Assembly: GCA_951799425.1 (NCBI GenBank)
Contig: OX637393.1
Location: 13,312,744-13,376,743 of the forward strand
Source of the DNA: Ilex aquifolium
Lineage: Eukaryota > Streptophyta > Magnoliopsida > Aquifoliales > Aquifoliaceae
Length of the DNA stretch: 64,000 bases
Direction: 5' to 3'
The translations under genes were made by a program, and so were the position numbers. Below the pieces are notes generated by a model. It saw nothing but the letters and a program-made list of their open reading frames with translations, did not search any database and was not told where the DNA came from. Below are positions 5,138 to 63,209 of the stretch, piece after piece (the stretch's first letter is position 1; each line of letters begins with the position of its first letter).

Positions 5138-5483
5138 TGATGGTCGGAGGCAGCGAAAGGGACTCCGATGCTTAAGTTAAATCGCAAGTCAAAGAAGAGT
5201 ATGAAATAAATAGGCTTGGATTGAATCCCCTATCTGGTACTCGGAGGCCTTTATTTATAGTGGTAAGAAGCTATGTTTCAAAGGGACTCAAACTCTTGGT
5301 TGTGATAGGATGAACCTCATTACTAGCTCCTAGATATTCGGGGTAGAGTTAGACCAGGGCACTTGCTTCTAGGTCCTAATCATTATTTCTTGGTTGTTCA
5401 TAGTAGTATTTAACTAGGACTCTTACTCCTTAGTGCCTTATCACTAACCCCTAGATATTCAAAGCAGAATTGGACTAGGACTA
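5138..5483 (-). repeat. LTR of the old Ty3/gypsy element, left part
   Basis: Lies directly upstream of the minus-strand gag. Read on the minus strand it ends ...CCGACCATCA at 5138 and carries a TATA box (CTATAAATAAA, 5260-5250) about 110 bases before that end. The LTR is split by the composite element at 5484. Its remainder continues from 19875. Confidence 0.5.
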
Positions 5484-6206
5484 TGATGATACCTAAAATA
5501 AACTCCAGAAACGAGCTCTGAAAGTGAGCTCAGCTAGGGAGCTCAGTTGGTATACGCTGAGCTCATCCACCCAGGGTCTGAGCTCGTCCAGCCGGTACTA
5601 GAGCTCCCAGCTAGAGACACGAAATAAGGGATGACAAGAGGACATCAAGATGACACCAGATACCATCATAAAAGGAATCAAGCTGGAACCAAGGCATAAA
5701 ACCGGTAACCAACCAAGATCCTCTCCTAAAATTAAGGGGAATTCCACGGAAGAAGGCAAAGATCTCGAGATGGAAACCACAAAAGCCGGCCATTTGGATT
5801 CGATGTAACTCCGGGATTGGAGAGGGGGAGATGAAGGAAGATCCCTTCATTATAGGAAGCAAATCCGGATTAGAGGTAAGCAAGAGGCTATAAAAAAGGG
5901 GGGAGAGCCACAAAGGACGGGGATCCCAAAACTCTCATCTTTTCACTGCTGTAATACGTTCAACTTGATCAATAAGAAAGAGAGGAGCCAGAGACTCCAT
6001 TACAGAGTGGCCTAGCCGAGCTCAGACCGGTGAACCACTATAATCTTGTCTTGTTATCACCCCCTTTCCCAAATCCCCTAAGCATCATATTGCATTGTCA
6101 AGCACGAGCCTTGCAGCTCAGACACCGTACTCAACTCCACCCAAATCGTCCATACCGAATAATCCTGTTCTATAGCTCAGCTCATTTGCGTAGATTCACA
6201 CCATCA
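5484..6206 (+). repeat. LTR A (left LTR of composite element)
   Basis: 723 bp, TGATGATACC...CACCATCA. It matches LTR B base for base except for roughly 15 differences by eye (about 98%). A TATA box CTATAAAAAA lies at 5888-5897. The U3 part is very rich in AGCT-centred words such as GAGCTCAGCT. The open frames on its minus strand are shadows and also appear in the other LTR copies. Confidence 0.9.
5888..5897 (+). promoter_or_regulatory. TATA box of LTR A
   Basis: GGCTATAAAAAA precedes a leader containing TTGATCAATAAGAAAGAG, with LTR end 309 bases downstream. The same box is at 15892-15900 (LTR B), 19473-19481 complement (LTR C), 21113-21121 and 35784-35793 (element 2). Confidence 0.7.
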
Positions 6207-6211
6207 GTTTG

Positions 6212-9073
6212 GAGTTGACTACCCTACCTGGTTGGCGAATGTGGTCCTCGTCAAGAAAACCAATGGCAAATGGCGACTGTGCATCGACTTCACCGATCTC
6301 AACCGAGCATGCCCCAAGGATAGTTTTCCCTTACCTCAGATCGACTTAATAGTGGATGCCACAGCTGGACACGAGCTGCTTAGCTTCATGGACGCCTTCT
6401 CAGGTTATAACCAGATTAGGATGGATCCCAATGACCAGGAGAAGACCTCCTTTGTAACTGAACAGGGAACATACTGTTATCGGGTCATGCCTTTTGGATT
6501 AAAGAACGCTGGAGCCACTTACCAGCGGCTGGTAAATAGGATGTTCCAAAAACAAATAGGAGCATCCATGGAAGTTTACATCGAGTCCAGATTCTAAGGG
6601 AGTACAAAAATGAAGCTCAACCCTGGGAAATGCGCATTTGGGGTCTCGGCAGGAAAATTCCTGGGTTTTATAGTTAGCAGCAGAGGGATTGAAGCTAACC
6701 CAGAGAAGGTTAGGGCAATGGTGGAAATGCAATCACCATCCAACACAAGGGAGGTGCAACGCTTGACAGGCAGGATAGCTGTCTTGAGCCGTTTTGTGTC
6801 TAGGTCAAGCGATAAGTGCCAGCCATTCTTTCAGATCTTGAAGAAGGCGTTCCAGTGGGATACCAAGTGTGAAGAAGCATTTAAAGCCCTGAAAGATTAT
6901 ATGAGCTCCCCTCTTGTTTTGGTGAGCCCTTCAGAAGGGGAAGTCCTTACTCTCTACCTGGCGGTTTCGGATTTTTCAACAAGCGCAGCGCTGGTTAGGG
7001 AGCGAGGCAGAGCTCAACAACCAGTCTATTACTGTAGCAGAGCCTTAAGGGGGGCAGAGGAGAGATATCCAAAAAATGGAAAAACTCGTTCTAGCGTTAG
7101 TTACGACAGCCAGAAGACTTAGGCCCTATTTCCAGGCCCATACCATTGAAGTTCCAACAGACCAGCCAATGAAGCAAGTGTTACATAAACCAGAGTCCTC
7201 GGGAAGGTTGGTTAAATGGGCCATAGAGCTCAACGAGTTTGACATCAGATATAAGCCAAGAACTGCCATCAAAGGGCAAATTTTGGCGGATTTCATCGCA
7301 GAATTCACAGCCACAACGCCTTTGGAAACCACAGATTTAGTACCAGACCTCCCCATATGGAGGCTTTCAGTAGGTGGAGCTGCTAATGCCCAGGGAAGCG
7401 GTGCAGGAATGATATTGACCTCTCCAGAAGGATTAGATGTCGAGTATGCCCTAAGATTTGGGTTCAAGGCTTCAAATAACGAGGCAGAATATGAAGCTGT
7501 CATCGTTGGGCTCAATCTTGCTTATTCTATGGAAGCAGAGCAGTTGGAGATCTGCAGTGACTCTCAACTGGTAGTAAAGCAGATAGAAGAGTCCTACGAA
7601 GTGAGAGGCGAAAAAATGGTCATTTACCTCAAAAAGGTACGAGAACTAATGAAGAAGTTTGTGCAGGTTAAGGTCAGACACGTGCCCAGAGCAGAGAATG
7701 CACGAGCGGATGCATTGGTGAGGTTAGCAACTGCTTCACAAGAAGATTTGGATAGGCTAATACCAGTAGAGCACCTTCCAGAGCCTTCAGTGGGTATCGA
7801 AGAAGAGGACATGCTACCAATTGAAGCTCAGCCGAGCTGGATGGACCCCATCATAGGGTACCTGCAGAGTGGGACTTTGTCAAGCGATGCCAAGGAGGCA
7901 TCCAAACTGAGGACCAGGTCAGCCAGGTTTTCCTTGCTGCAAGGAAATCTGTACAAACAAGGATTCTCAACGCCTCTCCTTAAGTGCGTGGGAGATGAAG
8001 ATGCCAACTATATACTCAGAGAAGTACATGAAGGGATATGTGGCAATCATATAGGAGCTCGGGCCTTGGCAGGAAAAGTACTAAGACAAGGATATTATTG
8101 GCCAACCATGCTCAAAGATGCCACCGATTTAGTAAAAAAATGCAAGGTTTGCCAGGAACACGCCAATGTTTCCCACTGTCCACCTGAGCTGCTAACCTCG
8201 GTGGTAAGCCTATGGCCCTTCCAACAGTGGGGTTTGGATATTCTTGGATCCCTTCCCACCGGTGTGGGACAATGCAAGTTTGCTATTATAGGGGTGGATT
8301 ACTTCACCAAGTGGGCGGAGGTCGAACCTTTGGCAGCAATCACCGAACAAAAAGTCCAAAACTTCGTTTGGAAGTCGATAGTTTGCAGATTTGGGGTTCC
8401 CAGAGCAGTCGTGTTTGACAATGGGAAGCAGTTTGACAACTCAAAGTTTAAAAGCTTTTGTGCTGAGCTTGGGATAAAGAACTATTTCTCAGCTCCTGCA
8501 CATCCTCAATCCAATGGGCAAGCAGAGGTCACAATCAGAACCATAAAGACAGCTCTGAAGACTAAATTAGAAAACCTAAAAGGCAAGTGGGTGGAGTACG
8601 TCCCTGAGGTATTGTGGGCCTACAGGACCACCGTCAGGTCAGCAACTCAGGAAACCCCCTTCGCTTTGGCCTTTGGAACCAAAGCAATAGCCCCTGTTGA
8701 GGTGGGGCTCCAATCACCAAGGGTGGAATTTGCAGATGTCGAACACAATGATGAGTCTCTTTTATTAAACCTCGATCTCTTGGATGAAAAGAGAGAAAGA
8801 GCTCTGCATCGTGTCCAAATTTACCAAAGGAAAACTGCAAGATACTACGACAGGAAGGTAAGACACAGAAGTTTCAAGGCTGGAGACTTGGTACTTAGGA
8901 GGCTTCTGCTTGCAAGGAAGGATCCCACGCATGGGAAGTTGGGACCCAACTGGGAAGGACCCTATATCGTATCAAGGGTAATCAGACCAGGGAACTATGA
9001 GTTGCAAACAGAGGAGGGGAAGGTCCTACCACACTCTTGGAATGTCGAACACCTTAAGAAGTTCTTTCAGTAA
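6212..9073 (+). pseudogene. Tat pol remnant: RT (broken), RNase H, archaeal-type RNase H, integrase
   Basis: Starts inside RT at a VDYPTWLANVVLV motif, six bases after LTR A, so gag, protease and the RT fingers are absent here. RT continues to VYI at about 6582. About 60 bases relative to element 2 are then missing, removing the YIDD catalytic box, and a stop follows at 6595. The frame resumes at 6610 (RT thumb, Ty3 RNase H) and shifts by one base in the A-run near 7074. From 7076 to 9073 it is open: rest of RNase H, second RNase H (about 7350-7730), integrase zinc finger (H..H...C..C, about 8020-8160) and integrase core. The second RNase H has VGGAAN where element 2 has VDGAAN, so its first Asp is lost. 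Integrase keeps D, D and E (LDIL, FDNG, QAEVT). It ends KKFFQ, stop at 9071-9073. Confidence 0.92.
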
Positions 9074-9169
9074 GTGTTACTTGTAGTAGGGCTGTTTTAA
9101 TAAGAATAAACGAGTTTTTATTCACCCTTATATGGTTTCCAAAGTAAAGGAATGTACAATAAGCTCTAC

Positions 9170-9640
9170 AGCTAACGATAAGCTTCTAAGCTTATAAAGT
9201 ACAAGATGAGCTCCTCAGCTCATAAGCAAACGATAAGCTCCTAAGCTTATAAAGTACAAGATGAGCTCCTCAGCTCATAAGCAAACGATAAGCCTCTAAG
9301 CTTATAAAGTACAAGATGAGCTCCTCAACTCATAAGCAAACGATAAGCCTCTAAGCTTATAAAGTACAAGATGAGCTCCTCAGCTCATAAGCAAACGATA
9401 AGCTTCTAAGCTTATAAAGTACAAGATGAGCTTCTCAGCTCATAAGCAAACGATAAGCTTCTAAGCTTATAAAATACAAGATGAGCTCCTCAGCTCATAA
9501 GCAAACGATAAGCTTCTAAGCTTATAAAATACAAGATGAGCTGTTCAGCTCATAAATAAACGATAAGCTTCTCAGCTTATAAAGCATAAGACGAGCTCTT
9601 CAGCTCGTACACAAGCGACAAGCCTCTAAGCTCATAGAAT
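9170..9640. repeat. 55-bp tandem array, about 8.5 units, each with two palindromes
   Basis: Each 55-bp unit contains ATAAGCTTCTAAGCTTAT, a perfect 8-bp stem with a 2-base loop, and TGAGCTCCTCAGCTCA, a 6-bp stem with a 4-base loop. Units differ mostly at CTCCTC/CTTCTC and AAAGTA/AAAATA. It lies just after the integrase stop and before the antisense genes. The same array is at 28956-29640 in element 2. Confidence 0.9.
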
Positions 9641-10088
9641 TCAAAGCTGGTCTCTTCTTGGAGACACCAACAGTCTTTCCCCCATGACTAGTAGTCCTTG
9701 TGCACTGCCTACGTACTCGAAGACCCCAATATGTTCGGTATAACAGGGATCAGCTACGAAATCAGTTGGGAATTGAGGTCAGTGCAAACATGATCTTCTG
9801 TTTTCCATCAATGTTCGTGGTTCGACCAGTGGAATCAGTCAGGAACTAAGGGCAGTGCAAACATGATCTTCTGTTTTCCATCCACGTTCGTGTTCTGAAC
9901 ACGAAGAGCGTGCTAAAATAACCTTACAGAGTTCGGAGTGAGCTCCTCAGCTCATAAAGAGTTGCATATTCAAAAATAAAAGATCTGATATTCAGAGTAT
10001 CCAACAGTACAAATGTTCAGAAAAATATAAGGAAAGTCATAGTCTGACATCGCTCAAGTAAAGAAGAAAGTACAAGGGGGAAGAGCTC
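9641..10088. other. Non-coding spacer after the array
   Basis: Contains an imperfect direct duplication of about 75 bases: GTGCAAACATGATCTTCTGT occurs at about 9782 and again at about 9860. Probably the 3' untranslated region of the antisense gene that ends at 10089. No open frame of note. Confidence 0.5.
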
Positions 10089-11179
10089 CTAGTCCTTCTT
10101 AGGCCAGGACTCCAGCTCAGCCACTTCCTCCTTCAGATGGGCATTCTCTTCCTTCAACTCGTCTCTCTCTTGCTCAGCCTTATGGAGTGAATCAAGAAGT
10201 TTCTGACCTGCTGGAGTGAGGAAAATAGTGGAAAGAGATTCAGGAGAAAAGGAGCCATCCCTCTTACGTCTCTTAGAACTCGCTCCAGTGTCCCCATCTT
10301 CATCAGAATCTCCCTCTTCATCAGAATTAGAGAAAGAGGTCCAGGAAGAGTAGGGGAGAGAGGAAAATTCATATTCAGTGGCCTCAGCCCCAAGCAGATA
10401 AAGGTTTGCACTCGTCATCAACTCAGAATAAGACCTAGGCTCGACGAGCAGCAACTTATCAATGTTCATCATCTCTGGCACATCCAGATCAGGGGGACCT
10501 GAGCAACAAGAGTATAATAAGAATATGTCTTTCAGAGAAACGTATAGACAAAAGAGCTCAGCTAGAACTTACTAATGCGTGAGAAGCTCTTCCAGGACCG
10601 AGGAATCCTAGCCTCACGACAGCGATCCTCAGGAGACCGCCAGGACTCCCCAGAAACAAAAAAGAAACGACTAGACCATCCTTCAGGATTGGGGGGAAAG
10701 CCGAGAACCAAAGGCCGTAATTTAAAATTCCTCCAACGGAAGAAGCTGAAGCAGGGGGCGTCGTCTTCTTCGATCTCGAAGAAGTATAAGAACTCAAAGA
10801 CAAAAGGGAACCTGCCGAGACCATGCAGGCGGCAGAACAGGAAGAAGCTTACCATAGCGGCCCATCCTCGTGGGGAAAGGCGAGAAGGGCATAGGCCATA
10901 GTAGGCAAGAACTCGCCCTATGGCTGGATGAATGGGAAGGCGAAGTTCCATATCCATGGCGCCTTTAAAAAAGCAAACTTCCCCTCGAGGAAGGTAGCTA
11001 CAGGGCTCATCGGGAGTAGGAACCCTAAGAGAAAGATCAAGATCAGGAAAAAATCGCCTCTTAATGGCAACCAAATCAGAAAGTTTCATGGTCGAAGGAG
11101 TTAAGTATCGACGTTGCCACTTCCATTCAATTCCGAAGGAAGTACGATCCTGGAAAAGGGAAGAAGCAGAGGCAGCCAT
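10089..11179 (-). CDS. Antisense gene Y of the composite element: spliced 338-aa Transposase_28-like protein with coiled coil
   Basis: Two exons: 11179-10573 and 10498-10089. The 74-base intron has donor GTAAGT and acceptor TTGCTCAG and splits a Ser codon; joined length is 1017 bases, 339 codons with stop. Exon 1 (about 202 aa) has FFKGAMDMELRLPIHP, YYGLCPSRLSPRGW and SFFLFCRL blocks, resembling the plant 'putative gypsy type transposon' family (Transposase_28). Exon 2 holds an acidic Ser/Asp/Glu stretch, an RKR basic patch and a C-terminal coiled coil (LHKAEQERDELKEENAHLKE). The start MAASASS is the first Met of the open frame. The reading frame is intact. The function of these proteins is not known; antisense extra genes are a known feature of Tat elements. 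The copy in element 2 has the same length and intron position. Confidence 0.75.
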
Positions 11180-12225
11180 TGAAGGTTAGGGTAAAGACAG
11201 AGAATGGTCACAAGAAGCCAAGAGGAAACTCAAGGATATTTTCTGCAAAGAGAGGAAAGAAACTTAACAGAAGATAGGAGACTTAAAGGAATCAGTAAGT
11301 ATTTAGGAAACCAAGGGCCACGCGAAAGGGAGTCGGCTGCCTTTTTGGTTTCTTAATTAATAGAGGTGGTTACGGTTATGGAAAACGGTTGGGAAAAAGG
11401 CGGGAAAATGAATCAGCGCAAGATTAACCCTCCTATCGCACTCAAAACAACTGAAGAAAATTCTGACCCCACCCAAGCAGAACATTCTTCATGTTTGAGC
11501 TCAGCCCGGTCAAAAACAGAGCACCTATATAGCAAGTCTTTGAGACCTGCAGTTCCAAGAGCCCTGCTCACATCAGAATGGAAAAGTTCCTAATGGGTTC
11601 CTCAGATGATCAAAAGAACTTAGCAGCTCATGAAGTCCATAGCCTTGCTTGAAGGAGGACTGAGGCACTTCTCAAAGCAAGGGGGGTAAGGGAGGTACAA
11701 GAAAAAGAAAACACAGAAGAAAGTTCACAAAAAGAGCCATGAAGCTCAGAAAGAACTTTTAAGTTCAGATAGAAGAGCCCCGAAGCTCAGTAAGAACTTT
11801 AAAGTACACAAAAAAGGCCATGTAACCCAGTAGGAACTCGCCAGTTCACAATACCAAGCTGTGTGGCTCAGAATGAAGGAGAAAAGGGAAGGGATCCCTA
11901 AGATACCAACTACCGAGCTCAACAGCTCAGGAGAAGTCATCTAAGCACAACACCAAGTCTTCTATACTCTTCAAATCTAGTAATGTCGCCTCAAGAAGTG
12001 CACAGCACCCCTCAAAGCGAAGGGGGGAAGGGGAGTATGTAAAGCAAAACAAGTAAGTTGTGCAGTTCGAAATTGAAATTCAAAGGTATATATGTGCTAA
12101 GCCAGCAAAGGAAAAACATATGAAGATTGCAAAGTAACACAAAAATCCTAGCCCGAGGCAAAGTTGCATTAAAAAAAAAAAAAAAAAACATTCTTACAAA
12201 GAAAAGAGGTTACAACTAAAAAATC
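11180..12225. other. Spacer between the two antisense genes
   Basis: Serves as upstream region of gene Y and 3' region of gene X. A TATTAATTAA-like box lies on the minus strand near 11353-11364 and is conserved in element 2 near 31341-31352. Imperfect repeats of AGAACTTT and AAGCTCAG-type words run from 11730 to 11870, and a 20-base A-run is at 12170-12188. No convincing coding frame. Confidence 0.45.
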
Positions 12226-14826
12226 CTAAGTTTTTGGAGGAGGAGTGGACAGAAGATCCTGCAGCTCGGCGGATGCAGCCTCAACAAGAGTGGCAGAACT
12301 CAGGAGCTCAGGGGGCAAGGATCCCAAAGCTGGAGGAGTAGAATTGTCAGGAACGCTGACCCCAGGAGCCTCTGCCCTATCTGGTAATGATCCTTGTTCA
12401 AGAGCTTCGGTCACCAGGTCAGCAGAGAAGGACGCAGCACGAACAATCGAGGGAGGAGCAGGTATATCCTGGAGCAGGGCTTCAGGAGGAAGAGCTGAGG
12501 TATCTTCCTCACCATCAGAGTCAGTTTCTTCCAATTCCCCTTCTGTTGGGATAGGAAAATTGAAATCTAGGTCAGGAAAATTCTTGCAAGCCTTGCGCTG
12601 AAAAGCAATCCATCCAGAGGCCCATTGGGTGGTAGCTTCATCAGTCAGCTCAGCTATTAAATCACTCTTCTCCTTGACCTCCTTGTGGAGAATCCCATTG
12701 GCCTCGCAAATGGTGTCATATTCTCTCTTTGTGAATTCAAGAGAGTTGCGGGCGTCAAAAGCATCCTGGTTAGCCTTAGCCCAGAGCTCAGTTTTGTGCT
12801 TCAGCTCATCCCCCACAATCCTTAGCTCGTTGCGAGCCTTCTTCTCTCCCTCCTCAGCCTTGAGCTTGGCCGCTTGAAAGCCCTTGAGATCAGAGGATTG
12901 CTTCTCCAACTGTTCGGTTAGAGCCTTTACTTGGTTTCTGAGATCCTCATTCTTAAAAGCCTGTTCCGCAACCTTGAGCTCATACGCCTTCAGAGCTTTA
13001 ACAGAAGACTCGGAAGACCGAACTCTCCTCAACAGGCCCTTTACGTGGATAACCATCTAAAAAGACAAAGGTAAATAAAGCAAGCGGCAAACAGCTATGG
13101 CGTAAGGTTAAGCGGGTGACTGAGAATATCGAGACTTACAGAGGTTGCTCCCTGAAGAGCTGAGGTGATGGACTCTTCAAGCTCCATAGTGGCAGCCCTC
13201 TTGATGTCAGACTCGGGGAGAATAGAGGAAACAGCCCCTGCGGCGAGCTCCATGTTTTCAAAAAAGGAATCCTTATCTTCCTTCACGTCGGGTAGCGTCC
13301 CCTTCTTGCCCTCAGAACCCACCGGTGGTGTCTTAATAATCTTCCCTGAAGAGCTGTATTTGAAACTACCAGGTCGGATACGCGGGATCACATCCAAAGC
13401 CTTCTCAATCTCTGACGAGGAAGGAGAGGTCTATCCTCCCGCCAAGATAGGCTGGGTTTTTGGAGAAGGAGGGGTCTTCACAACCTCGGAGGAGCTAGGT
13501 GGAGGAGCCAGATCCTCAGCAGCTGAAGAAGATGTTGGCCCCCCCACCTTTTGAACTTTGGCCTGAGGAGCAGAGCTACTCCCAGAACCGACCTGGACCT
13601 TTCGCTTGCTACCTCTGCCACTCTTTGACAACTTATCCACCTTGGCCTGGATTTCCTCCGGGTTAAGCTTCATAGTGGAAGATCCAGGAAGATCTGAGCT
13701 AAAACAGTTAGATAAAAAGAAATGAAAAGTAAGATAAATGAACCCTTAGGAAAAAGGGGTTACCAGCAGCTCCTTCAGGTCTGACCACAGAAATTGGAAG
13801 CGGAGCCTCAATCTCTACTTCATGGAGGCTGAACCCTCTGTCCACCAAAACCCAAGGCAGAATGAGCTCGGAATACCTTCTTGGGGTGCACTTTGCCAAT
13901 ATCTCCCTCGCCTCTTGTTCCTTAGTACTGAGCTTGAGACGAGTACCTAAAAAAACACAAAGGCAGAGCAGAGTTAGGAGCTCATGTCCCTCGAAACGAG
14001 AAACGCAACTAACCCAATTTAAGGACTCACCCAAGTTCTCCGGAGAAGTCCAGGCCTTGGGAATACCAAGAGTATCCGACCTGTTAGCAGGATTGTATTC
14101 CCAGTTGGTGCCCCCGACAAAAAAGAAATGTTCCTTCCAGTGTTTGTGGGAGGTCGGAATGTTAGAAATAAGCTGCCTAACATTGGCGCGTTTGGAGGCA
14201 TACAAGAAGCCTTCGGAGGTCGGTTTAACATTGAAGAACTCTAGGAACAAGGGAAGGGTAGGGACCCCTAGGTCTAAATCTCTGAAAATAACCAGAAGAC
14301 CCGCTAAGACACCCCAGAAATTAGGAGAAAGTTGAGAGGGGCACACATGGAAGTACTGCAGAATGGTCTTGAAAAAGGGATGTATAGGAAAACGAAGGCC
14401 ATTATCGAAGGCGGCCTAAAAAAAACAGACCCTCTTGTTAACCCGGGCGACGTAGGGAGTAAAACTGTTTGGGCTCAAGAGCTCAACGCCTTCAGGGAAC
14501 CTATAGCGAGTACGCAAAACGTTTAACAAGAAGAGGTTGAGCTTGCTAGGGCCCACCTGCTCAGCTAGCTTATAGGCAGCTCCTAAATACGTTGAGACAT
14601 CAGAAATCCCAACTCCACTGACCTTGCCTTTGCCTTTGTCAGACTTAGGGGGCAGGGGAGAAGATGTTAAGGGAAGCTCCTCGGTGTTGACCCCAGAATC
14701 AACGACATCTACCCCAGGGAAATTGTCTATCTTGTCGCCTACTTCCCCTAATTCAGTATCTTCTTCAGCTGACCTATTCCCTAAGAGTGAAACAGAGGAG
14801 CGAGTGGCTCCAGAAGAGGCTGACAT
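12226..14826 (-). pseudogene. Antisense gene X of the composite element: four-exon Transposase_28-like protein, two nonsense codons
   Basis: Exons, minus strand: 14826-14031, 13946-13764, 13693-13140 and 13056-12226. Donors are GTGAGT, GTAACC, GTAAGT; acceptors end TTTTAG, GCTCAG, TTTTAG. Joined length is 2364 bases, 788 codons, in frame throughout. Exon 1 starts MSASSGATRSS, has an acidic linker, then RLPIHP-like, FHVCPSQLSPNFWGV and GTNWEYNP blocks (Transposase_28-like, paralogous to gene Y). Exon 3 is Ser/Pro-rich. Exon 4 is a long coiled coil followed by a DSDGEED acidic segment. TAG codons at 14418-14416 and 13433-13431 break this copy; the second would derive from CAG by C to T. It may start further upstream, but MS is preferred because the preceding frame is interrupted in this copy. 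Confidence 0.7.
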
Positions 14827-15464
14827 GGTAGGAAGAGAAAAAGGAAGATTAAAAGAACGATAAAGGGAAGGGACACTGGTCAAGCACTCTCTAATGACCC
14901 TTGGGTCAACATAGTAACTCCCAATGGCAAGGATGTGAACTATAGACCCCAATCTACGAAGTGGGGAAGTGGGGCTAGGCAATGGTCACGATTCCAAAAG
15001 TAAAAGAACCGAAAAGCCAAAAAATGAAGCAACCACCTCGAATTCGAGGGATCCAGAGCAAAGGAGGGAGTGAAAGGAGCAAAGGACGTACCTAACTCAA
15101 GAATAGCGGCAAACAGAAGCCTGGAGCAATATCGAAGGGAGGAGGCGCTGCGAGTCGTCAAGACGAGAAGTAGGAATTCGGCTTCAAACAAGAAATCAGA
15201 AAAGTTCGAGAAAGGTGGTCTGAAATCGCAAGAAGAATGGAGACGAAGAGCAATGGAGAAGATGAATAGTGTAAAGAAACGGTTCAGGTAGCCGTTTTGG
15301 GTATTTAAAGCTTGAAAGACGTGGACTGAGACGTGCGCGGGAATCGAGGGGAGTCATGATTGCTGCGAACCGTCAAAAATCGTCAGCCATGTGAGAAGCC
15401 AAGGGAGACCACGTGTAGATCTAGCTCGGGTTGAGAAACAGTTCAGCCCTTACCTAAGCTAACT
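14827..15464. other. 5' region of antisense gene X
   Basis: Untranslated leader and promoter region for the antisense gene, just inside the 3' LTR. The block 15270-15345 is nearly identical to 35180-35256 of element 2. No independent gene is supported. Confidence 0.45.
15301..15310 (-). promoter_or_regulatory. Candidate TATA box for antisense gene X
   Basis: On the minus strand the sequence reads CTTTAAATACCC, about 480 bases upstream of the chosen start and transcribed away from LTR B. An identical box with matching flanks is at 35221-35212 in element 2. Conservation of this block between two diverged elements supports a function; no experimental start site is known. Confidence 0.45.
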
Positions 15465-15487
15465 TAGAGCAAGAGCTGGGGGGCAAC
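15465..15487 (+). promoter_or_regulatory. Polypurine tract of the composite element
   Basis: AGCAAGAGCTGGGGGGCAAC immediately precedes LTR B; it is the plus-strand primer site for reverse transcription. The same GCTGGGGGGCAAC motif precedes the 3' LTR of element 2. Confidence 0.7.
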
Positions 15488-16210
15488 TAATGATACCTAA
15501 AATAAACTCCAGAAACGAGCTCTGAAAGTCAGCTCAGCTAGGGAGCTCAGTTGGTATACGCTGAGCTCATCCACCCAGGGTCTGAGCTTGTCCAACCGGT
15601 ACTAGAGCTCCCAGCTGGAGACACGAAATAAGGGATGACAAGAGGACAGCAAGATGACACCAGATACCATCATAAAAGGAATCAAGCTGGAACCAAGGCG
15701 TAAAACCGGTAACCAACCAAGATCCTCTCCTAAAATTAAGGGGAATTCCACGGAAGAAGGCAAAGATCTCGAGATGGAAACCACAAAAGCCGGCCATTTG
15801 GATTCGATGTAACTCCGGGATTGGAGAGGGGGAGATGAAGGAAGATCCCTTCATTATAGGAAGCAAATCCGGATTAGAGGTAAGCAAGAGGCTATAAAAA
15901 GGGGGGGAGAGCCACAAAGGACAGGGATCCCAAAACTCTCATCTTTTCACTGCTGTAATACGTTCAACTTGATCAATAAGAAAGAGAGGAGCCAGAGACT
16001 CCATTATAGAGTGGACTAGCCGAGCTCAGGCCGGTGAACCACTATAATCTTGTTTTGTTATCACCCCCTTTCCCAAATCCCCTAAGCATCATATTGCATT
16101 GTCAAGCACGAGCCTTGCAGCTCAGACACCGTACTCAACTCCACCCAAATCGTTCATACCGAATAATCCTGTTCTATAGCTCAGCTCATTCGCATAGATT
16201 CACACCATCA
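15488..16210 (+). repeat. LTR B (middle LTR of composite element)
   Basis: 723 bp, begins TAATGATACC (one change from TGATGATACC) and ends CACCATCA. TATA box at 15892-15900. It is followed directly by inverted RT sequence, not by flanking DNA, so it is not a normal 3' LTR end. Confidence 0.9.
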
Positions 16211-19097
16211 GCATCCTATTTACCAGCCGCTGGTAAGTGGCTCCAGCGTTCTTTAATCCAAAAGGCATGACCCGATAACAGTATGTTCCCTGTTCAGTTA
16301 CAAATGAGGTCTTCTCCTGGTCATTGGGATCCATCCTAATCTGGTTATAACCTGAGAAGGCGTCCATGAAGCTAAGCAGCTCGTGTCCAGCTGTGGCATC
16401 CACTATTAAGTCGATCCGAGGTAAGGGAAAACTATCCTTGGGGCATGCTCGGTTGAGATCGGTGAAGTCGATGCACAGTCGCCATTTGCCATTGGTTTTC
16501 TTGACGAGGACCACATTCGCCAACTAGGTAGGGTAGTCAACTTCCCTGATGGCCTCGGCATGGAGGAGCTTGCTGACCTCCTCATTAATTGCTCTTTGCC
16601 TTTCGGAGGCAAAGCTCCTCCTCTTCTGTTTGACGGGCTTGCAAGTTGGGTCCACGCTTAGCTTATGGGTAATAACCGAAGGGTCAATTCCTTCCATGTC
16701 TTCTTGTTTCCAAGCAAACACTCCTATATTCTCCTTTAGGAACTGGATGAGGAGACCTTTGAGCTCAGCGTTCAGTCTGGAACCCACATAAACAAGGTGT
16801 TCTGGCTTCCCATCAAGCTGAATTGGTTCCAGCTCTTCTGAGGGCATTGGTCTTGTCTCCATTTCATCTCTCATATCGAGTTCATCCAATTGGATGTTCT
16901 CAACCTCCTTCCTCTTTACCGAAGCCATGTAGCATTCTCTTGCTACACGCTGGTCTCCTCGGACTACTCCGATTTCATTTTCTGTGGGGAATTTGACGAC
17001 CAGGTGATAGGCCGACGGGATTGCCTTCATGGAATTAAGGGATGGTCTTCCAAGCAAGATGTTGTATGCAGAGGGTGCATCGACCACTAGGAATTTTACG
17101 GTTGTGGTGGCCTGGCAAGGTGGGTCCCCTAGGGTGAGCACGAGTTGGATCGAGCCCAGGGGGAGCACCCTTTCCCCGGAGAATCCCAGCAAGTGAGTGT
17201 TTACAGGTTCAAGTCTCTCCCTTCCTATGTCCATCTTGTCGAATGCAGGTGCGAAAATGATATCCGCCGAGTTTCCGTTATCGATTAGAACCCGATGAAC
17301 GGTTCTATTAGCCACCACAGCTCGCACCACCAATGGATCATCATGAGTGTACTGACATCCCTCCAAATCAGCATCTGAAAAAGTGATAGCTGTATCTAAG
17401 CGTGGTGCTTTGGATACAGCGTGTACTTCGAGAGCTTCTTCGGCTATGATCCGTCGGAGGTGTGCTTTCCTGGCTGAGCTGGATTCTCCGCCTCCTGCGA
17501 ACCCTCCAGATATTACTCTAATCTCACCTAGAGGCTGCTGATGTGGCGCGGGTGCCTGCTGTTGGGGTGGTGGAGGTGGAAGAGCTCGGTTCTGGTTGTC
17601 ATGAGCTACGAAGCGACGTAACTGACCTCGCTGGATCAAGAACTCGATTTCCTTCTTTAGCTGAATGCAGTCATCAGTGTGGTGACCATGATCTCTGTGG
17701 TAGTCGCAGTACTTCGTGGGGTCTCTCTTGGCCGGATCTGCCTTCATCCGAGGTAGCCATCTTAAGAACTTCTCGTTTTGGACCTCATACAGAACTTGTG
17801 ACACAGTGGCAGTGAGTGGGGTGAATCGCTGAGGTCCGTATCTGGGTTGTAGTTCAGGCTGCATGGGGCCCAGGCGATCTCTAACATTTCCTCTTCTCTT
17901 TGGCGAGCGGTCCCTATCTCTTCTTGGAGACCTCTCTCGCCCTTTTTCCTTCCTGGGACTCCGATCCCTTTTCTTCTCTTCTTTTTCCTTTTCCTTTCGT
18001 GAGGATGTACCCCCTACTTTGGAAAGTAGTGCCTCTTCACCATTTATATACTTCTCTGCCTTGGCTAACACTTCAGCCATACTTGCCTGAGGATTCTTTG
18101 ATATGGAGAACATTAAATCCTTTGATTGTACTCCTAACCCTGCAATAAAGGCAGTTATGGCGAATTTTTCGTCTGGAACGTCTACTTTTAGTGTCTCCGA
18201 GTTGAACCTTTGGACATAAGATCTCAGGTTTTCTTGGGGCCCCTGTTTCACATTCAGTAGGTGGTAGCTCGGCTTTCTGTATATTCGGGCTCCTATAAAG
18301 TGAGATACGAAAGCTATGGAGAGCTCTTTAAAGGATTGGATCGAGGCTGGTGGGAGCCTGTGAAACCAGGCTAGGGCGGAGCCTTTCAGTGTGATGGCAA
18401 AAGCTCTGCAACGTATAGGATCCTGGTATCCATGCAGCTCCATCTGGTTCTTGTAAGTGTTGAGATTATCTACGGGATCTTTTGTTCCGTCAAAGACCTC
18501 TATTTGTGGCATCCTGAACTTTGGTGGGAGAGGAAAGTGCAGCACTCCAATGGTGAATGGGGACTCAGTTTGTTGCACCAAGACGTCCATTGTAACCGGA
18601 GCCTTGCTCTTTACAACCTCCTTCATGTGGCTGAGCTCTTGCTGGATGTCTTTGAAGCACTGCTCCCAGTGTTGTTCCCTTCTGTCTTGCGGGTAAGGGA
18701 AAAAATCGTCCCTCTCACCCCCATCATTCTGACTTTGCACTTCCTCGTTGTGGCCATTCCTAGGGGGTAGGTAAGGAACATGTCCCCTGGTCTGGCTTCT
18801 TTCTCCTCCTTCGTTGACCTCTCTAAGGGGGTCCTAGTGTCGTTGTTCCCTATGAGGGGGATTATTCTGGCCTTCTTGGGCCGGTCGTGCCTCCTGCGGG
18901 CGTTGTATGAGCTTTGACAGCTCTGTATTTTCCCTTAGCAAGCGTTTGTTGACGAGGCGAAGGGCCTCCATCTCGTTATTAATGGGGGAATTAGCCTCTT
19001 GGACGTTCCCGAGTTGTCTACCGTTGGTAGTTTCCTGCTGATCTTGCATTCGTGGTAGGTTTGTTTGACTTCTGCTCATATTTCGAGTTGTTACCAT
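16211..19097 (-). pseudogene. Inverted gag-protease-RT(5' part) of the composite element
   Basis: Read on the minus strand from the Met at 19097 (MVTTRNMSRSQ). Gag core with F.G..+P and YVQRFNSETLKV motifs, Arg/Lys/Glu-rich linker, and a Tat zinc-knuckle variant (CDYHRDHGHHTDDC, near 17720-17680) are followed by an aspartic protease (VLIDNGNSADIIF, near 17290) and the RT N-terminal half up to QRLVNRM at 16211, where it abuts LTR B. TAG codons at 18836-18834 and 16526-16524 both stand where the other copy has TGG. The last 330 bases duplicate the start of the plus-strand pol at 6212-6541. Gag builds the particle; protease matures gag-pol. Confidence 0.9.
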
Positions 19098-19139
19098 TAG
19101 TCACTGAGAAATCAGCTTATTTGTAAATAGGAACAGTCG

Positions 19140-19157
19140 TTCCCACAGACGGCGCCA
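19140..19157 (-). promoter_or_regulatory. Primer binding site of the inverted part
   Basis: TGGCGCCGTCTGTGGGAA, three bases after the U5 end of LTR C. The first nine bases complement the 3' end of plant tRNA-Asp; the rest do not fit it well, so the primer tRNA is uncertain. Confidence 0.65.
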
Positions 19158-19160
19158 AAC

Positions 19161-19874
19161 TGATGGTGTGAATCTACGCGAATGAGCTGAGCTATAGAAC
19201 AAGATTATTCGGTATGAACGATTTGGGTGGAGTTGAGTACGGTGTCTGAGCTGCAAGGCTCGTGCTTGAAAATGCAATATGATGCTTAGGGGATTTGGGA
19301 AAGGGGGTGATAACAAGACAAGATTATAGTGGTTCACCGGCCTGAGCTCGGCTAGTCCACTCTGTAATGGAGTCTCTGGCTCCTCTCTTTCTTATTGATC
19401 AAGTTGAACGTATTACAGCAGTGAAAAGATGAGAGTTTTGGGATCCCCGTCCTTTGTGGCTCTCCCCCCCCCTTTTTATAGCCTCTTGCTTACCTCTAAT
19501 CCGGATTTGCTTCCTATAATGAAGGGATCTTCCTTCATCTCCCCCTCTCCAATCCCGGAGTTACATCGAATCCAAATGGCCGGCTTTTGTGGTTTCTATC
19601 TCGAGATCTTTGCCTTCTTCCGTGGAATTCCGCTTAATTTTAGGAGAGGATCTTGGTTGGTTACCGGTTTTACGCCTTGGTTCCAGCTTGATTCCTTTTA
19701 TGATGGTATCTGGTGTCATCTTGTCATCCCTTATTTCGTGTCTCCAGCTGGGAGCTCTAGTACCGGCTGGACGAGCTCAGACCCTGGGTGGATGAGCTCA
19801 GCGTATACCAACTGAGCTCCCTAGCTAAGCTCACTTTCAGAGCTCGTTTCTGGAGTTTATTTTAGGTATCATCA
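19161..19874 (-). repeat. LTR C (inverted right LTR of composite element)
   Basis: 714 bp on the minus strand, same family as LTRs A and B. It differs by an 11-base deletion near 19731 and scattered substitutions. Its U3 end forms the right border of the composite. TATA box is the complement of 19473-19481. Confidence 0.9.
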
Positions 19875-20718
19875 GACTCTAAGTCTTTGATTGGTCCTTA
19901 GCTGAATAGGAGTCTCCTAGCGAAGGTGGACAAGGGAGCTCATAGCAACTTAGGTAACAAGGAGGTAGCTGAATAGTTGATGCTTAGTGGTTACATGTAG
20001 GCTCGTGTAAGGACCCTTCGTGGACTAATGCTGACCGGCAGACCCTTACCCAAGAGGCTGCTGAGTGGCAGTGGCTCTCCTAGGTAGGCACTGACCAGCA
20101 CAAACAACGTAAAAGGTGTCCTCACGAGCCCTTGGTTGAACTAAAGTCTTCCACTTGTGCCTCCTTAAGTGTGACCCACATGGTCTTGCTCCTTTGTAAC
20201 TGTTTGTCGGCAATAGCAAAGTTGAATGGAGTCCCCACATTTGGTGTGTTTTCGATCAATCTTTTGAAAATAAATTTCCAATTTTTTATATGTTTTCATC
20301 ATGACTCCGAATTTGTTTGAAATACCTCCTTTTTCAAGCTAATAGAATATATAAATCGAGATAAAATTTGGATCCTTGGCCTCACCACACTCTTCGCCCT
20401 CCAATCTTTCACTAGTAGCATGCCCTCAAAGTCACACACACTCTCTCTCTCCCCCCCCCTACACACACACCCCGGTACACCTAGACCCACAAGCACACAC
20501 ACTCTCCTCTATTTCTCTGCATGTTTCTCGTAGAATTTGTTTCGATCACTATCAATTGTTTCTTTGCATATCCTTCCTTTTAAACACCTAATAACATGCT
20601 AAAACTCCTTTCTTTGTAGCTTACGCCACTCAATATAGACGATGCACAGTCAGCTTTTCCCTCTAAATACATATTTCCTTCATTCACCTTTTTGGTAATT
20701 CACCTACCATTAGGGATC
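19875..20718. other. Remainder of old LTR and low-complexity flank
   Basis: Roughly 19875-20170 reads as the continuation of the old minus-strand LTR interrupted at 5484. From 20420 to 20500 there is a CT/CA microsatellite with a nine-base C-run. No gene seen. Confidence 0.45.
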
Positions 20719-21425
20719 TGATGATATCTAAAGTAAATCCAGACGCGAGCTTAGATAGTAAGCTCAGCTCGGGAGCTCAGGTAAAGTAAACAGAGCTCAT
20801 CCAGCAATGGTCTGAGCTCTACCAGCTGGCACTAGAGCTCCCAGCTGAAGACACGAACTGAGAAATAACGAGAGGGCAGCAAAATGACAGCAGATACCCT
20901 CGTAATGGGAATTAAGCCAATCCAAGGCGAGAAACCCGTTGTCAACCAAGATCCTCTCCTAAAACCAAGGAGAGGATCCCATGATAAAAGGCAAAGAACT
21001 CGCCATTCGGAGCCAGCCATAAGAAGTTTAGGTAACCCCGAGATTATAGATGAAGATAGGGCACGATCCCTTCGATAAAGGAGGTGATTTCGAATTAGAG
21101 GTAAGCATGAGGCTATAAAAAGGAGGACAAGCCCCCATTGAAGGGGACGAGAAAACCCTAATACCCAAAATACTCTACTGTAACCCGTTCGATTTAATCA
21201 ATGAGAAAGAGAGGAGCCAGAGACTCCATTGCAGAGTGGACTAGCCGAGCTCAGGCCGGTGAACCACTGTAATCTTATTATTCTCCCCTTTCCCCAATTC
21301 CCAAAGCATTAACCCGCTCTATCAAGCACGAGCCTCGTAGCTCAGACGCCGTACTTAGCTCTACGCAGATCGATCATATCCAACAATCCTGCTCCATAGC
21401 TCATTCGCGTAGATTTACACCGTCA
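20719..21425 (+). repeat. 5' LTR of element 2
   Basis: 707 bp, TGATGATATC...CACCGTCA, TATA box at 21113-21121. Related to, but clearly diverged from, the LTRs of the composite element; it shares the AGCT-rich U3 and the leader GAAAGAGAGGAGCCAGAGAC. Confidence 0.92.
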
Positions 21426-21428
21426 GTT

Positions 21429-21446
21429 TGGCGCCGTCTGTGGGAA
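21429..21446 (+). promoter_or_regulatory. Primer binding site of element 2
   Basis: TGGCGCCGTCTGTGGGAA, three bases after the LTR, identical to the site in the inverted part of the composite element. Confidence 0.7.
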
Positions 21447-21487
21447 CGACTGTTCCTATTACAAATAAGCTGATTTCTCAGTGACTG

Positions 21488-24400
21488 ATGGTAACGACTC
21501 GAAATATGAGCAGAAGTCAAACAAACCTACCACGAATGCAAGATCCACAAGAAGTTACCAACGGCAGACAACCCGAAAACGTCCAAGAAATTAATTCCCC
21601 CATTAACAACGAGATGGAGGCCCTTCGACTCGTCAACCAGCGCTTGCTAAGGGAAAACGCAGAATTATCAAAGCTCGTACAACGCCCACAGGAGGCACGA
21701 CCGGCCCCAGAAGGCCAGAACAATCCCACTCATAGGGAACAACGACACTGGGACCCCCTTAGAGAGGTCAACGAAGGGGGAGAAAGCAGCCAGACCAGGG
21801 GGCATGCTCCTTACCTGCCCCCTAGGAATGGCCACAACGAGGAAGTGCAAAGTCAGAACGATGGGGGTGAGAGGGACGATTTTTTCCCTTACCCGCAAGA
21901 CAGGAGAGAACAACATTAGGAGCAACGCTTCAAAGACATCCAGCAAGAGCTCAGCCACATGAAGGAGGCTGTAAAAAATAAGGCTCCGGTTACAATGGAT
22001 GTCCTAGTGCAACAAACCGAGTCCCCATTCACCACTGGAGTGCTACACTTTCCTCTTCCACCAAAGTTCAGGATGCCACAAATAGAGGTCTTTGACAGAA
22101 CGAAAGATCCCGTAGATCACCTCAACACTTACATAAACCAGATGGAGTTGCATGGATACCAGGATCCCGTACGTTGCAGAGCTTTTGCCATCAGATTGAA
22201 AGGCTCTGCCCTAGCCTGGTTTCATAGGCTCCCGCCAGCCTCGATCTCATCCTTTAAAGAGCTCTCCATAGCTTTCGTATCTCACTTTATAGGAGCCAGG
22301 ATATACAGAAAGCCGAGCTACCACCTGCTGAATGTGAAACAGGGGCCTTGATGAGCGCATAATATTGCATATTTGAAGGGCTCATTACATGCATTATAAC
22401 TCAACTTTTGCATTTAAATACTTAGTGTTAGCCAAAATTGTCAATAATGTTGATATTTTGATGTTGCATGTTTTTATACCTTAAATCATGTATTTTATAA
22501 CCTTGCAACTATGATGGATGTGTGGTGAAGGCATAGACACAATACATGAAGAATTGGAGGCTTAAAAGTGAAGAAATCAATAAGGCATTGGTGCTTGGGA
22601 ACAAGGGCATCAGCAGCCACATCATTTGGAAGCACTTCCTTGGTTTTCCTCCATTTTGGCCATGATCTACTCAGAATCAGGAAAAGTTCAAAACATAAAA
22701 GTTGTAGATCTGGATGTCTTCTATATTGTGTCAAAATTTCATCCCAATCCAACGGTTGGATCAAAAGTTATGCCGATTCTACCAAAACTGGTCCAGCGAA
22801 GCCAGATACCGCATTACTACCGGTAGCCGATTGCTTCTGGAGTTGCTGCTACCGCCGAGCTACCGGTAGTTGATTGCCCAGAAGTGCCCAGAACGACTTC
22901 TTTCTTGCTCCACTTGCTTGGGGGTCCCACCTACACTTCTCCCACGCCTAGCCTGACATTTTATCCCTACAACCATGCCTCCCTTACACAAATGGAAGAC
23001 TTTGGAGGCTTGGCATTGAATGAAGAGGAGAGAGAAGTGGGCTGCCATATGGGGTTGCAGGCTACCCTGTCAAGACCCATCAACTCAGCCCCCTCTTGAT
23101 GGGAGGCTTTGCACACACCTTGGGGGGACCACCATGCACGAAATGGAAAGTCTCCCACACTCCATACATTGAGCATTACACATGGGAGGGGGGGTTGGCT
23201 ACCTAAGCTTAGGAGAGAGATAGAAAGCTCTAAGGAAGAAGATGAATAGTAATTTTCGTTTTTTGCATTTCCTTTCCATTGCAAGTGCTGTAAGCTTTAA
23301 ACTTCTTGTATTCCTTAATCCTTGCACTTTAATCTCATCTATTTCAAGTTCATTGCAAGTTTAATCATTTGTTCTAGCTTTCACCATTTATGTTTTCAAG
23401 TTCTTTAATTTTCAAGTTTTACATTTGGGTATTTGTTTCAATATGTGTATTATGTTCATGAATGTCATTTCTCTTTCACCTTAGCTCTTTTCTTGCAATT
23501 TCTACAAGTTCAAATCTCCATTTCTCTTCCATGTCCATTTCATTTATGCTTGTCTTGCATTTTTAATATGAGTAGCTAGGATTTAAGTTGGTTAATCCAA
23601 GGGAAAATTCCTCTTGGGAATACCATGTTCAACTCTTCTTCATTCCTCCCTTTTGAGTCAAATGGTTCGGTTTGACGGGGTTGAGAGTGGATGAGTTGGT
23701 GAGCCTTTGATATTCCGTAGGCCTAGTCACGGTTTATGCTTAGATACTCACCAATCTCGTCCCTAGCTTCCCCCGAATCAATCGTTCATTCATGCTCAAT
23801 CGGAGGAAGGCTTTGAGTTGATTTGGTATTCCCATTGGAATGAACCCTTTGGATTAGCCAACACTTGCTTTATTTGCATTTTCATTTACAAACCAAACAC
23901 AAAACTCAAACATAAGATTTTACATTTTCTTTTCACTTTTGCAAAATCACTTTCACAAAACTCCCTTTCCTTCCCTGAGGAGACGACCTTGGAATACTCT
24001 TCCAAGTAAAACACCGACAACGAAAGACTCCTTGCGATTGGGGAGCGCTTTTGTTCACACCCGCATTTTATTCCACATATTTTGTTCATTCCACATTTAC
24101 ATCCATTTTGTTGTTGTTTCCTATCTTCTTGCATCATCCGGAGGGAGAGTGACACTCCCCCATCACTATAAGCCACATACACACATTGAGGGTGAGGGTG
24201 ATGTTACGAGGTTAGGAACGACGTAATTACCAATCAATCAGGCCTCAAGAAAACTTGAGGTCTTATGTCCAAAGGTTCAACTCGGAGACACTAAAAGTAG
24301 ACGTTCCAGATGAGAAATTCGCCATAACTACCTTTATTGCAGGGTTGGGAGTGCAATCAAAGGATCTAATGTTCTCCATATCGAAGAACCCTCAGGCGAG

Positions 24401-28856: not shown

Positions 28857-28955
28857 GTGTCACTTGTAGTAGAGCTGTTTTAATAAGAATAAGCGAGTTT
28901 TTTATTCACCCTTATATGGTTTCCAAAGTAAAGGAATGTGCAGTAAGCTTTACAG

Positions 28956-29640
28956 CTAACGATAAGCTTCTAAGCTTATAAAGTACAAGGTGAGCTCTTC
29001 AGCTCATAAACACACGATAAGCTTCTAAGCTTGTAAAATTCAAGATGAGCTCTTCAGCTCATAAACAAACGATAAGCTTCTCAGCTTATAAAGTTCAATA
29101 TGAGCTCTTCAGCTCATAAACAAACGATAAGCTTCTCAGCTTATAAAGTACAAGATAAGCCCTTCAGCTCATAAACACACGATAAGCTTCTCAGCTTATA
29201 AAGAACAAGATGAGCTCTTCAGCTCATAAATAAACGATAAGCTTCTAAGCTTATAAAATTCAAGATGAGCTCTTCAGCTCATAAACAAACGATAAGCTTC
29301 TCAGCTTATAAAGTTCAATATGAGCTCTTCAGCTCATAAACAAACGATAAGCTTCTCAGCTTATAAAGTACAAGATGAGCCCTTCAGCTCATAAACACAC
29401 AATAAGCTTCTCAGCTTATAAAGAACAAGATGAGCTCTTCAGCTCATAAATAAACGATAAGCTTCTAAGCTTATAAAATTCAAGATGAGCTCTTCAGCTC
29501 ATAAACGAACGATAAGCTTCTAAGCTTATAAAATACAAGATGAGCTCTTCGGCTCATGAATAAGCAATAAGCTTCTCAGCTTATAAAGAACAGAGCGAGC
29601 TCTTCAACTCATACAAACGACAAGCTTCTATGCTCATAAA
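28956..29640. repeat. 55-bp tandem array of element 2, about 12.5 units
   Basis: Same unit as at 9170-9640 with the AAGCTT and AGCTC palindromes, but more copies. Many units read AAGCTTCTCAGCTT, which breaks the perfect symmetry, and a higher-order period of several units is visible (blocks starting near 29060 and 29290 are nearly the same). Confidence 0.9.
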
Positions 29641-30088
29641 ATTCAAGGCTGATCTCTTCTTGGAGACACCAACAGTCTTTCCTCCACGGCTAGTAGCCCT
29701 TGTGCACTGCCTACACACTCGAGGATCCCAATATGTTTAGTACAGTAGGGATCACCTACGAAATCAGGTTGGAATTAAGGTCAGCGCAAACATGATCTTC
29801 TGTTTTCCATCAATGTTCGTGGTTCGATCTGTGCAGTCCGTCAAAGACTAAGGGCAATGCAAACATGATCTTCTGTTTTCCATCCACATTTGTGTTCTGA
29901 ACGCGAAGAGTGTGCTGAAATAACCTTACAGAACTCGGAATGAGCTCCTCAACTCGTAAGGAGTTGCATATTTCAAAAATGAAAGATCAGGTATTCAGAG
30001 TATCCAATAGTACAAATATTCAGAAAAATATAAGGAAAGTCATAGTTTGGCATCACTCAAGAAAAGAAAAAATACAAGGGTAGAGCTC
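29641..30088. other. Non-coding spacer after the array in element 2
   Basis: Counterpart of 9641-10088 with the same duplicated CATGATCTTCTGTTTTCCAT word. No gene. Confidence 0.5.
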
Positions 30089-63203: not shown

Positions 63204-63209
63204 TTTGTG

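What the first reader, a model, noticed from the sequence alone, without database searches (positions are those of the whole stretch)
5484..19874. Three-LTR composite retroelement that seems to have integrated as one unit with two U3 ends
Seen directly: LTR(+), 3' half of pol, antisense genes, LTR(+), inverted 5' half (gag to RT), LTR(-). The outer borders are both U3 ends, and the flanks GACTA/GACTC are a 4/5 match. Ordinary integration joins a U3 end and a U5 end. A cDNA with two U3 ends would have to form by aberrant reverse transcription, template switching between two RNAs, or autointegration before insertion. The two halves together hold a whole element's information.
Basis: partly seen in the sequence, partly recalled or inferred. 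Interest (0 to 1): 0.75.

Follow-up and report, generated by a model that had tools for sequence, protein, structure and literature searches.

The report
Retrotransposon inserted by two like ends
A plant jumping gene that was copied wrongly into two overlapping halves, one of them flipped, seems to have entered the chromosome in a single step through two copies of the same end instead of its two different ends.

Summary
Window 5484-19874 is LTR1(+), 3' part of pol plus antisense genes, LTR2(+), inverted gag-to-RT part, LTR3(-). It belongs to an abundant Retand-like (Ty3/gypsy, Tat) family of this 800-Mb genome. Three tests support one insertion with two U3 ends. (1) The site lies in an older repeat. 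In 8 of 9 paralogous loci fetched the joined flanks align through the join, and the target 5-mer ends in C in all 8 (GACTC in 5). GACTA is therefore a mutated copy of a 5-bp GACTC duplication. (2) The three LTRs share two changes absent from 20 other family LTRs, and each of the 20 substitutions among them affects only one of the three, so they have one source and one time of origin. (3) Both new inner joints keep bases beyond the U5 end (GTTTGG and G), whereas both outer ends are cleanly processed. Each inner joint was found once in the genome. The halves overlap by 331 bp and together equal one element. Most likely two faulty partial cDNAs from one particle were joined U5-to-RT, and integrase inserted the two U3 ends. 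The order of joining and integration is unresolved. This is an unusual but dead insertion: a new variant of the known three-LTR complexes.

The parts
5479..5483 (+). left target-site copy GACTA (GACTC with a C-to-A change)
   Evidence: in 8 of 8 aligned paralogues the fifth base is C; 5 of 8 read GACTC
5484..6206 (+). LTR1, U3 end facing left flank
6207..6212 (+). GTTTGG: native bases after U5, the last three being the first three of the primer-binding site; joint J1 follows
   Evidence: nine fetched 5' LTRs of other copies read CATCA-GTTTGGCGCC
6213..6543 (+). 331-bp RT overlap, copy in the 3' half
6213..9073 (+). 3' part of pol: rest of RT (58-bp deletion at about 6583), RNase H, RVT_3 (aRH-like), integrase
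9162..9636 (+). 55-bp tandem repeat array, 8.6 copies
10089..15353 (-). antisense ORFs, two with Transposase_28 (TRP28)
   Evidence: six ORFs of 120 aa or more; 5 of the 6 scanned, 2 match
15473..15487 (+). polypurine tract region GAGCTGGGGGGCAAC
15488..16210 (+). LTR2
16211..16211 (+). G: one native base beyond the U5 CA; joint J2 follows
   Evidence: RT copies have A (antisense) here, native LTR/PBS spacer has G
16212..16542 (-). 331-bp RT overlap, copy in the inverted 5' half
16212..19160 (-). inverted 5' half: PBS, gag, start of RT
19161..19874 (-). LTR3, U3 end facing right flank; 11-bp internal deletion
19875..19879 (+). right target-site copy GACTC

Best explanation
SHOWN: the 14.4 kb between 5484 and 19874 is one insertion into an older repeat. 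It has a 5-bp target duplication and a U3 end at both borders, and its three LTRs have one exclusive source among the copies compared and one time of origin. INFERRED: within one virus-like particle, reverse transcription produced two faulty partial cDNAs of the same element or of two near-identical copies. Copy a carries an LTR whose end was transferred to an internal RT site resembling the LTR end (shared CCATCAG) instead of to the primer-binding site. It therefore lacks the 5' part (LTR1|RT...LTR2). Copy b is a normal 5' part that stops 331 bp further into RT (LTR3-gag-RT|). The unprocessed U5 end of copy a was then joined, without microhomology, to the broken RT end of copy b. That gave a linear DNA with a U3 end at each tip. 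Integrase processed these two U3 tips normally and inserted them together. Repeated plus-strand priming and surplus strong-stop DNA, reported for Ty1/Ty3-type elements, are a plausible source for the third LTR.
For: Empty site: the left-flank search found the repeat. The joined flanks align across the join in 8 of 9 fetched paralogues, five of them in a single alignment, with target base 5 = C in 8 of 8. The independent right-flank search hit stretches directly next to left-flank hits on C3, C2 and C10, and within about 120 bases on C7 and C8. One origin: two shared changes, 0 of 20 other LTRs; each of 20 substitutions in one LTR only. Outer ends exact: TGATG at both. Inner ends unprocessed: GTTTGG and G beyond CATCA, while in 7 of 7 ordinary pairs the 3' LTR joins the host exactly at CATCA with an exact 5-bp duplication. 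J1: 7-bp match near the joint, reached at 40 of 12164 internal positions. J2: no microhomology. Halves complementary: overlap 331 bp, chance 2.7-5.5%; their sum of 12.6-12.7 kb equals the LTR spacing of ordinary elements, 12,525-12,859 in 9 of 12. Each joint pattern was found once in 800 Mb. Repeated priming in Ty1 and Ty3 and surplus strong-stop DNA: passages of a review, PMC5371799.
Against: No reads were available to check the joints directly. The order of events (ends joined before or after integration) leaves no trace. J1 needs TGG copied from the tRNA CCA or from a finished 5' LTR, and one A of the native RT sequence is missing, so it is not a clean annealing product. One of the three overlap differences (site 238) is a family polymorphism (A in 7 of 28 copies), hinting at two different RNA templates, and the nearest copies of the two halves differ (L056 for b, L058 for a), though several copies are almost as near. 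J2 could be an integrase joint if a single base mutated. The 58-bp RT deletion in copy a could be older or younger than insertion; 6 of 6 family loci inspected lack it.
Confidence: 0.6

Rival explanations
1. Trans-integration: integrase inserted the U3 ends of two separate cDNAs (a and b) at one target, leaving a chromosome break with a free U5 end on one side and a truncated RT end on the other. Host end joining then sealed the break, making J2 after integration.
For: Gives the same product; J2 lacks microhomology and looks like end joining of an unprocessed U5 end; a family polymorphism in the overlap hints at two templates.
Against: The near-complementary halves (331-bp overlap) become a coincidence of 2.7-5.5%; J1 still needs a separate event.
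Confidence: 0.25
2. Autointegration: the U5 end of one cDNA attacked its own RT gene (J2). The orphaned RT end was extended by about 331 nt and re-capped with an LTR by strand transfer (J1), and the two-U3 product was then integrated.
For: Orientation at J2 is that of a U5 attack with inversion; explains overlap and complementarity with one cDNA plus one extra LTR; inverted autointegration circles are described for retroviruses and Ty (PMC4751563 passages).
Against: J2 keeps a G beyond the CA that integrase should expose, and the RT copies have A there; single-ended rather than paired; one overlap site hints at two templates.
Confidence: 0.11
3. Two separate insertions in opposite orientation that lost the DNA between them by deletion.
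For: Family is abundant (1120 LTR starts by pattern); the LTRs of the closest relatives differ from LTR1 by only about 2%.
Against: Flanks contiguous in paralogues, target duplicated across the whole unit; two LTR changes shared by all three and not seen in 20 others; needs a deletion within 1 bp of LTR2's end.
Confidence: 0.02
4. Assembly misjoin at 16211/16212 or 6212/6213.
For: Repeat-rich region; no reads to inspect.
Against: Neither joint lies in an overlap shared by the joined parts (0 bp exact homology); the outer flanks match one contiguous target with a duplicated 5-mer, which a misjoin would not give.
Confidence: 0.02

Closest known systems
Template-switching three-LTR complexes of Triticeae, rice and maize (Sabot & Schulman 2007, PMC1950507; whole text read in two parts)
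   Same: Three LTRs, 5-bp flanking duplication, outer LTRs highly similar, single integration after abnormal reverse transcription
   Different: Theirs are dimers in which two complete cores share a middle LTR, described as inserted by standard integrase catalysis; here the cores are complementary parts, one inverted, and both outer ends are U3
Autointegration products of retroviruses and Ty1 (passages in PMC4751563; Garfinkel 2006 not held)
   Same: LTR end joined to an internal site with inversion of a segment
   Different: Those are circles; this one is chromosomal, has a third LTR and retains bases beyond CA at the inner joints
Truncated EVD insertions in Arabidopsis epigenetic mutants (passages in PMC10462705)
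   Same: Internally deleted LTR retrotransposons with two LTRs, some with target duplications, like copy a alone
   Different: No inverted half or two-U3 ends in the passages seen
Retand lineage elements (PMC11963269, part 1 of 5 and passages)
   Same: Antisense TRP28 ORFs between pol and 3' LTR, tandem repeats, sizes
   Different: Ordinary two-LTR elements

Membership tests
Retand lineage (Ty3/gypsy, Tat) | placement in RT phylogeny | not tested
   no reference RTs used
Retand lineage (Ty3/gypsy, Tat) | antisense ORFs with TRP28 (PF04195) between pol and 3' LTR | tested here: met
   5 of 6 antisense ORFs scanned, 2 match PF04195; feature from PMC11963269
Retand lineage (Ty3/gypsy, Tat) | second RNase H (aRH) between RH and integrase | tested here: met
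   RVT_3 at residues 113-226 between RT_RNaseH and Integrase_H2C2; feature of Ogre and Retand from PMC6317226 passages; equating RVT_3 with aRH is recalled
Retand lineage (Ty3/gypsy, Tat) | size ranges and tandem repeats (LTR 315-1194 bp, pol-3'LTR 2933-6566 bp, internal 7380-12869 bp) | tested here: met
   LTR 723 bp, pol-3'LTR about 6.4 kb, internal length about 11.9 kb from the two halves, 55-bp array
Template-switching three-LTR complex | flanking target duplication around the whole unit | tested here: met
Template-switching three-LTR complex | outermost LTRs highly similar, one round of reverse transcription | tested here: met
   12 of 712 differences, shared changes not seen in 20 other LTRs
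Template-switching three-LTR complex | two complete cores sharing a middle LTR | tested here: not met
   partial cores, second one inverted
Autointegration product | processed CA end joined to an internal site | tested here: not met
   both inner joints keep bases beyond CA: GTTTGG and G; one mutated base at J2 could hide such a joint
Autointegration product | paired attack with short stagger | tested here: not met
   overlap is 331 bp, not 5 bp
Integrase-mediated integration | processed ends and 5-bp duplication at the outer borders | tested here: met
   TGATG at both borders, GACTC target; 7 of 7 ordinary pairs fetched show exact 5-bp duplications

The most novel reading that the evidence does not exclude
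A natural case of integrase pairing the U3 ends of two different cDNA molecules of one particle and inserting them together. The cell then rescued the broken chromosome by joining the two cDNAs' free ends, so the retrotransposon itself became the patch.
Probability: 0.25. Interest if true: 0.65.

Novelty: new variant of a known kind. Interest (0 to 1): 0.5.

Why it matters
It suggests that a plant retrotransposon integrase can use two U3 ends in a cell and make a normal 5-bp duplication. It also records in a genome what can happen to defective cDNAs that are usually dead ends. Such inserts put inverted repeats into chromosomes and could be mis-annotated as two nested or deleted elements. The signature (two outward U3 ends, a shared target duplication, bases beyond CA at inner joints) can be searched for in repeat-rich plant genomes to measure how often this happens.

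Tried and rejected
Two independent insertions plus deletion: rejected by the contiguous paralogous target and the shared LTR changes.

Donation of the inverted half by the neighbouring related element (20719-36076): rejected, its gag part is only 92% and its LTR 74% identical.

LTR-LTR inversion after integration: it would not change the outer ends, so it cannot make two U3 borders. It could, however, interconvert two isomers of the same insert, which cannot be excluded.

A central polypurine tract near the RT breakpoints (a flap model): apart from the tract itself, the best resemblance to it in either half has 5 of 15 mismatches.

First polarisation of the LTR changes with the distant neighbour element left 4 of 20 sites unpolarised. 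It was redone with 20 closer LTRs.

Viral-contig scans for the J1 pattern and an integrase-region protein found no relative. Inverted similarity of the neighbour element's two flanks was no better than shuffles. Paper searches, seen as listings unless a paper is named as read: (3 papers; 10; 0; 0; 8; 3; 37, 20 listed; 90, 20 listed; 3), 82 (22, 8 listed). None of what I saw describes an inverted two-U3 insert; this says nothing about papers outside the library.

Results against or qualifying my reading. Of the 3 differences in the 331-bp overlap, one (238) is a common family allele (7 of 28) and one (126) is seen in 2 of 28 copies, so two RNA templates are possible. Of 41 non-self matches to the left flank only 9 loci were fetched, and many of the others stop about 60 bases short of the insertion point in that search. 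Of the 9, five cross the join in one alignment (L036, L037, L042, L043, L044), three in a second, shorter alignment piece, apparently because a unit of the repeat varies in number (L038, L039, L041), and one (L040) does not align cleanly across it. At 3 of the 20 LTR substitution sites the odd base also occurs in 1 or 2 of the 20 other LTRs, and a 21st site inside LTR3's deletion was left out of the count. Only 100 of 1120 LTR starts were listed for the orientation count. Of 37 other full LTR matches, 20 were fetched: the 19 best ranked and one taken to complete a pair.

Full report
ANATOMY. Self-comparison of the window gave the three LTRs, the inverted part and a 331-bp inverted overlap. LTR1 5484-6206 and LTR2 15488-16210 lie on +, LTR3 19161-19874 on -. 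Between LTR1 and LTR2 are the rest of RT, RNase H, an RVT_3 (aRH-like) domain, integrase, a 55-bp tandem array and antisense ORFs, two of which carry Transposase_28 (5 of 6 scanned). Between LTR2 and LTR3 lies the inverted gag-to-RT part. A related element at 20719-36076 and other family copies show the normal order. By its features the family is Retand-like (PMC11963269, part 1 of 5 and passages; PMC6317226, passages); RT phylogeny was not tested.

THE GENOME. The window is C3:13312744-13376743 of an unnamed 800-Mb assembly. A 26-base LTR-start pattern with up to 3 mismatches has 1120 matches. The 42 matches to LTR1 (a capped list) group in 26 clusters. Twelve are ordinary two-LTR elements with both LTRs on one strand (spacing 11.2-12.9 kb, 9 of 12 between 12,525 and 12,859). 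Thirteen show one LTR in that list. One has LTRs on both strands: this one. Of the 100 LTR starts listed, the only pairs within 20 kb with U3 ends facing outward are those of this insert.

ONE INSERTION. The left flank belongs to an older repeat (40 candidates scored of 454). Nine of the 41 non-self matches were fetched and compared with the joined flanks. Eight align through the join: five in one alignment, the best over 815 bases at 86%, and three in a second, shorter piece. The ninth, L040, does not. At the target 5-mer the eight read GACTC five times and AACTC, AACCC and AATTC once each; all end in C. So the right copy GACTC is ancestral and the left GACTA carries one change. The right-flank search independently found stretches directly next to left-flank matches on C3, C2 and C10, and within about 120 bases on C7 and C8. 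Per-base LTR divergence of 0.93% makes one change in ten duplicated bases about 8.5% likely, against 2.4% for a chance match of 4/5 or better. The empty site, not the match itself, carries the weight.

ONE ORIGIN OF THE THREE LTRS. Pairwise differences are 16/723, 12/712 and 13/712; substitutions per LTR are 7, 8 and 5, near the range of seven ordinary pairs (4 to 15 of about 720). Against 20 other family LTRs (of 37 other full matches), each of the 20 substitution sites is a change in one LTR alone, the other two keeping the commonest family base. At 3 of the 20 the changed base is also seen in 1 or 2 family LTRs. LTR3 alone has an 11-bp deletion, and a 2-G insertion also seen in 3 of 20. Two positions (alignment columns 66 and 249) are shared by all three and seen in 0 of 20 others. 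The three LTRs thus come from one source and began to diverge together.

THE JOINTS. In 7 of 7 ordinary pairs fetched the 3' LTR joins the host exactly at CATCA with an exact 5-bp duplication. Nine fetched 5' LTRs read CATCA-GTTTGGCGCC. The composite's outer borders are both exactly TGATG. Its inner joints are not of the host type. J1 keeps GTTTGG, that is, the spacer plus the first three primer-binding-site bases. J2 keeps G, whereas the RT copies have A there. J1 has no exact overlap but a 7-bp CCATCAG match just before the joint, matched as well or better at 40 of 12164 internal positions. J2 has no microhomology. Each joint pattern was found once in the genome at up to 2 mismatches.

THE TWO HALVES. 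They overlap by 331 bp with 3 differences. Together they make an internal length of 11,893 bp, which with one LTR and the 58-bp RT deletion gives about 12.7 kb, the normal LTR spacing. Two random breakpoints would lie this close in 2.7-5.5% of cases. Of the 3 differences, one is seen only in the inverted half, one (126 A) also in 2 of 28 family copies, and one (238 A) in 7 of 28. The nearest copies of the two halves differ (L056 at 1.48% for the inverted half, L058 at 1.47% for the other), with several others close behind. Because 80 of 993 possible changes in the overlap are already seen in the family, this is only a hint of two RNA templates.

MECHANISM. Shown: one insertion, two U3 ends, one source. 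Inferred: copy a lost its 5' part when an LTR end was transferred to RT instead of to the primer-binding site. Copy b stopped inside RT. The U5 end of a was joined to the broken end of b. Integrase inserted the two U3 ends. Repeated plus-strand priming in Ty1 and Ty3, and surplus plus-strand strong-stop DNA in particles, are reported in passages of a review (PMC5371799) and could provide the third LTR. Whether the joining came before or after integration cannot be read from the sequence. Autointegration followed by re-capping is possible but must explain the extra G at J2.

KNOWN AND NEW. Three-LTR complexes with flanking duplications were ascribed to template switching by Sabot & Schulman (PMC1950507, whole text); those join two complete cores through a shared LTR. 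Inverted autointegration circles are described for retroviruses and Ty (passages of PMC4751563). Truncated insertions are known in Arabidopsis mutants (passages of PMC10462705). My searches showed no chromosomal insert with two U3 ends in what I saw, within this open-access library only. I rate it a new variant of a known kind. The element is broken (a stop codon in the inverted RT fragment, a 58-bp deletion in the other RT part) and has no expected function of its own.

Noticed in passing
window 20719-36076: A second, related element in normal order; its 3' LTR lacks the last 21 bases of U5 (707 against 686 bases) and no right target copy was seen.
   Followed up: partly
window 22349-24240: A 1.9-kb solo-LTR-like insert (TGATG...ATCA) in the neighbour element's gag, flanked by GGCCT on both sides (read by eye).
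   Followed up: partly
window 41276-50507: Argonaute gene pieces on the - strand (Piwi, PAZ, ArgoN domains); a glycine-rich ORF at 49722-50507 (not scanned).
   Followed up: partly
window 61021-63207: Pieces matching Transpos_assoc and DUF4218, probably of a CACTA-type transposon (recalled).
   Followed up: no
window about 6583: 58-bp deletion in the RT of the 3' half, absent from 6 of 6 family loci inspected; it takes away the region of the YxDD active site (motif recalled).
   Followed up: partly
L017: An LTR followed by what looks like a repeat of its own last 100 bases.
   Followed up: no
L020: A single LTR inserted in the first bases of another LTR, with ATACC duplicated.
   Followed up: no
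G000:C3:9740007-9755828: Neighbouring LTRs with U3 ends facing each other 3.2 kb apart, probably two adjacent insertions.
   Followed up: no
L036, L078: The repeat that holds the insert has a paralogue about 12 kb upstream on the same chromosome (C3:13305853-13306612).
   Followed up: partly
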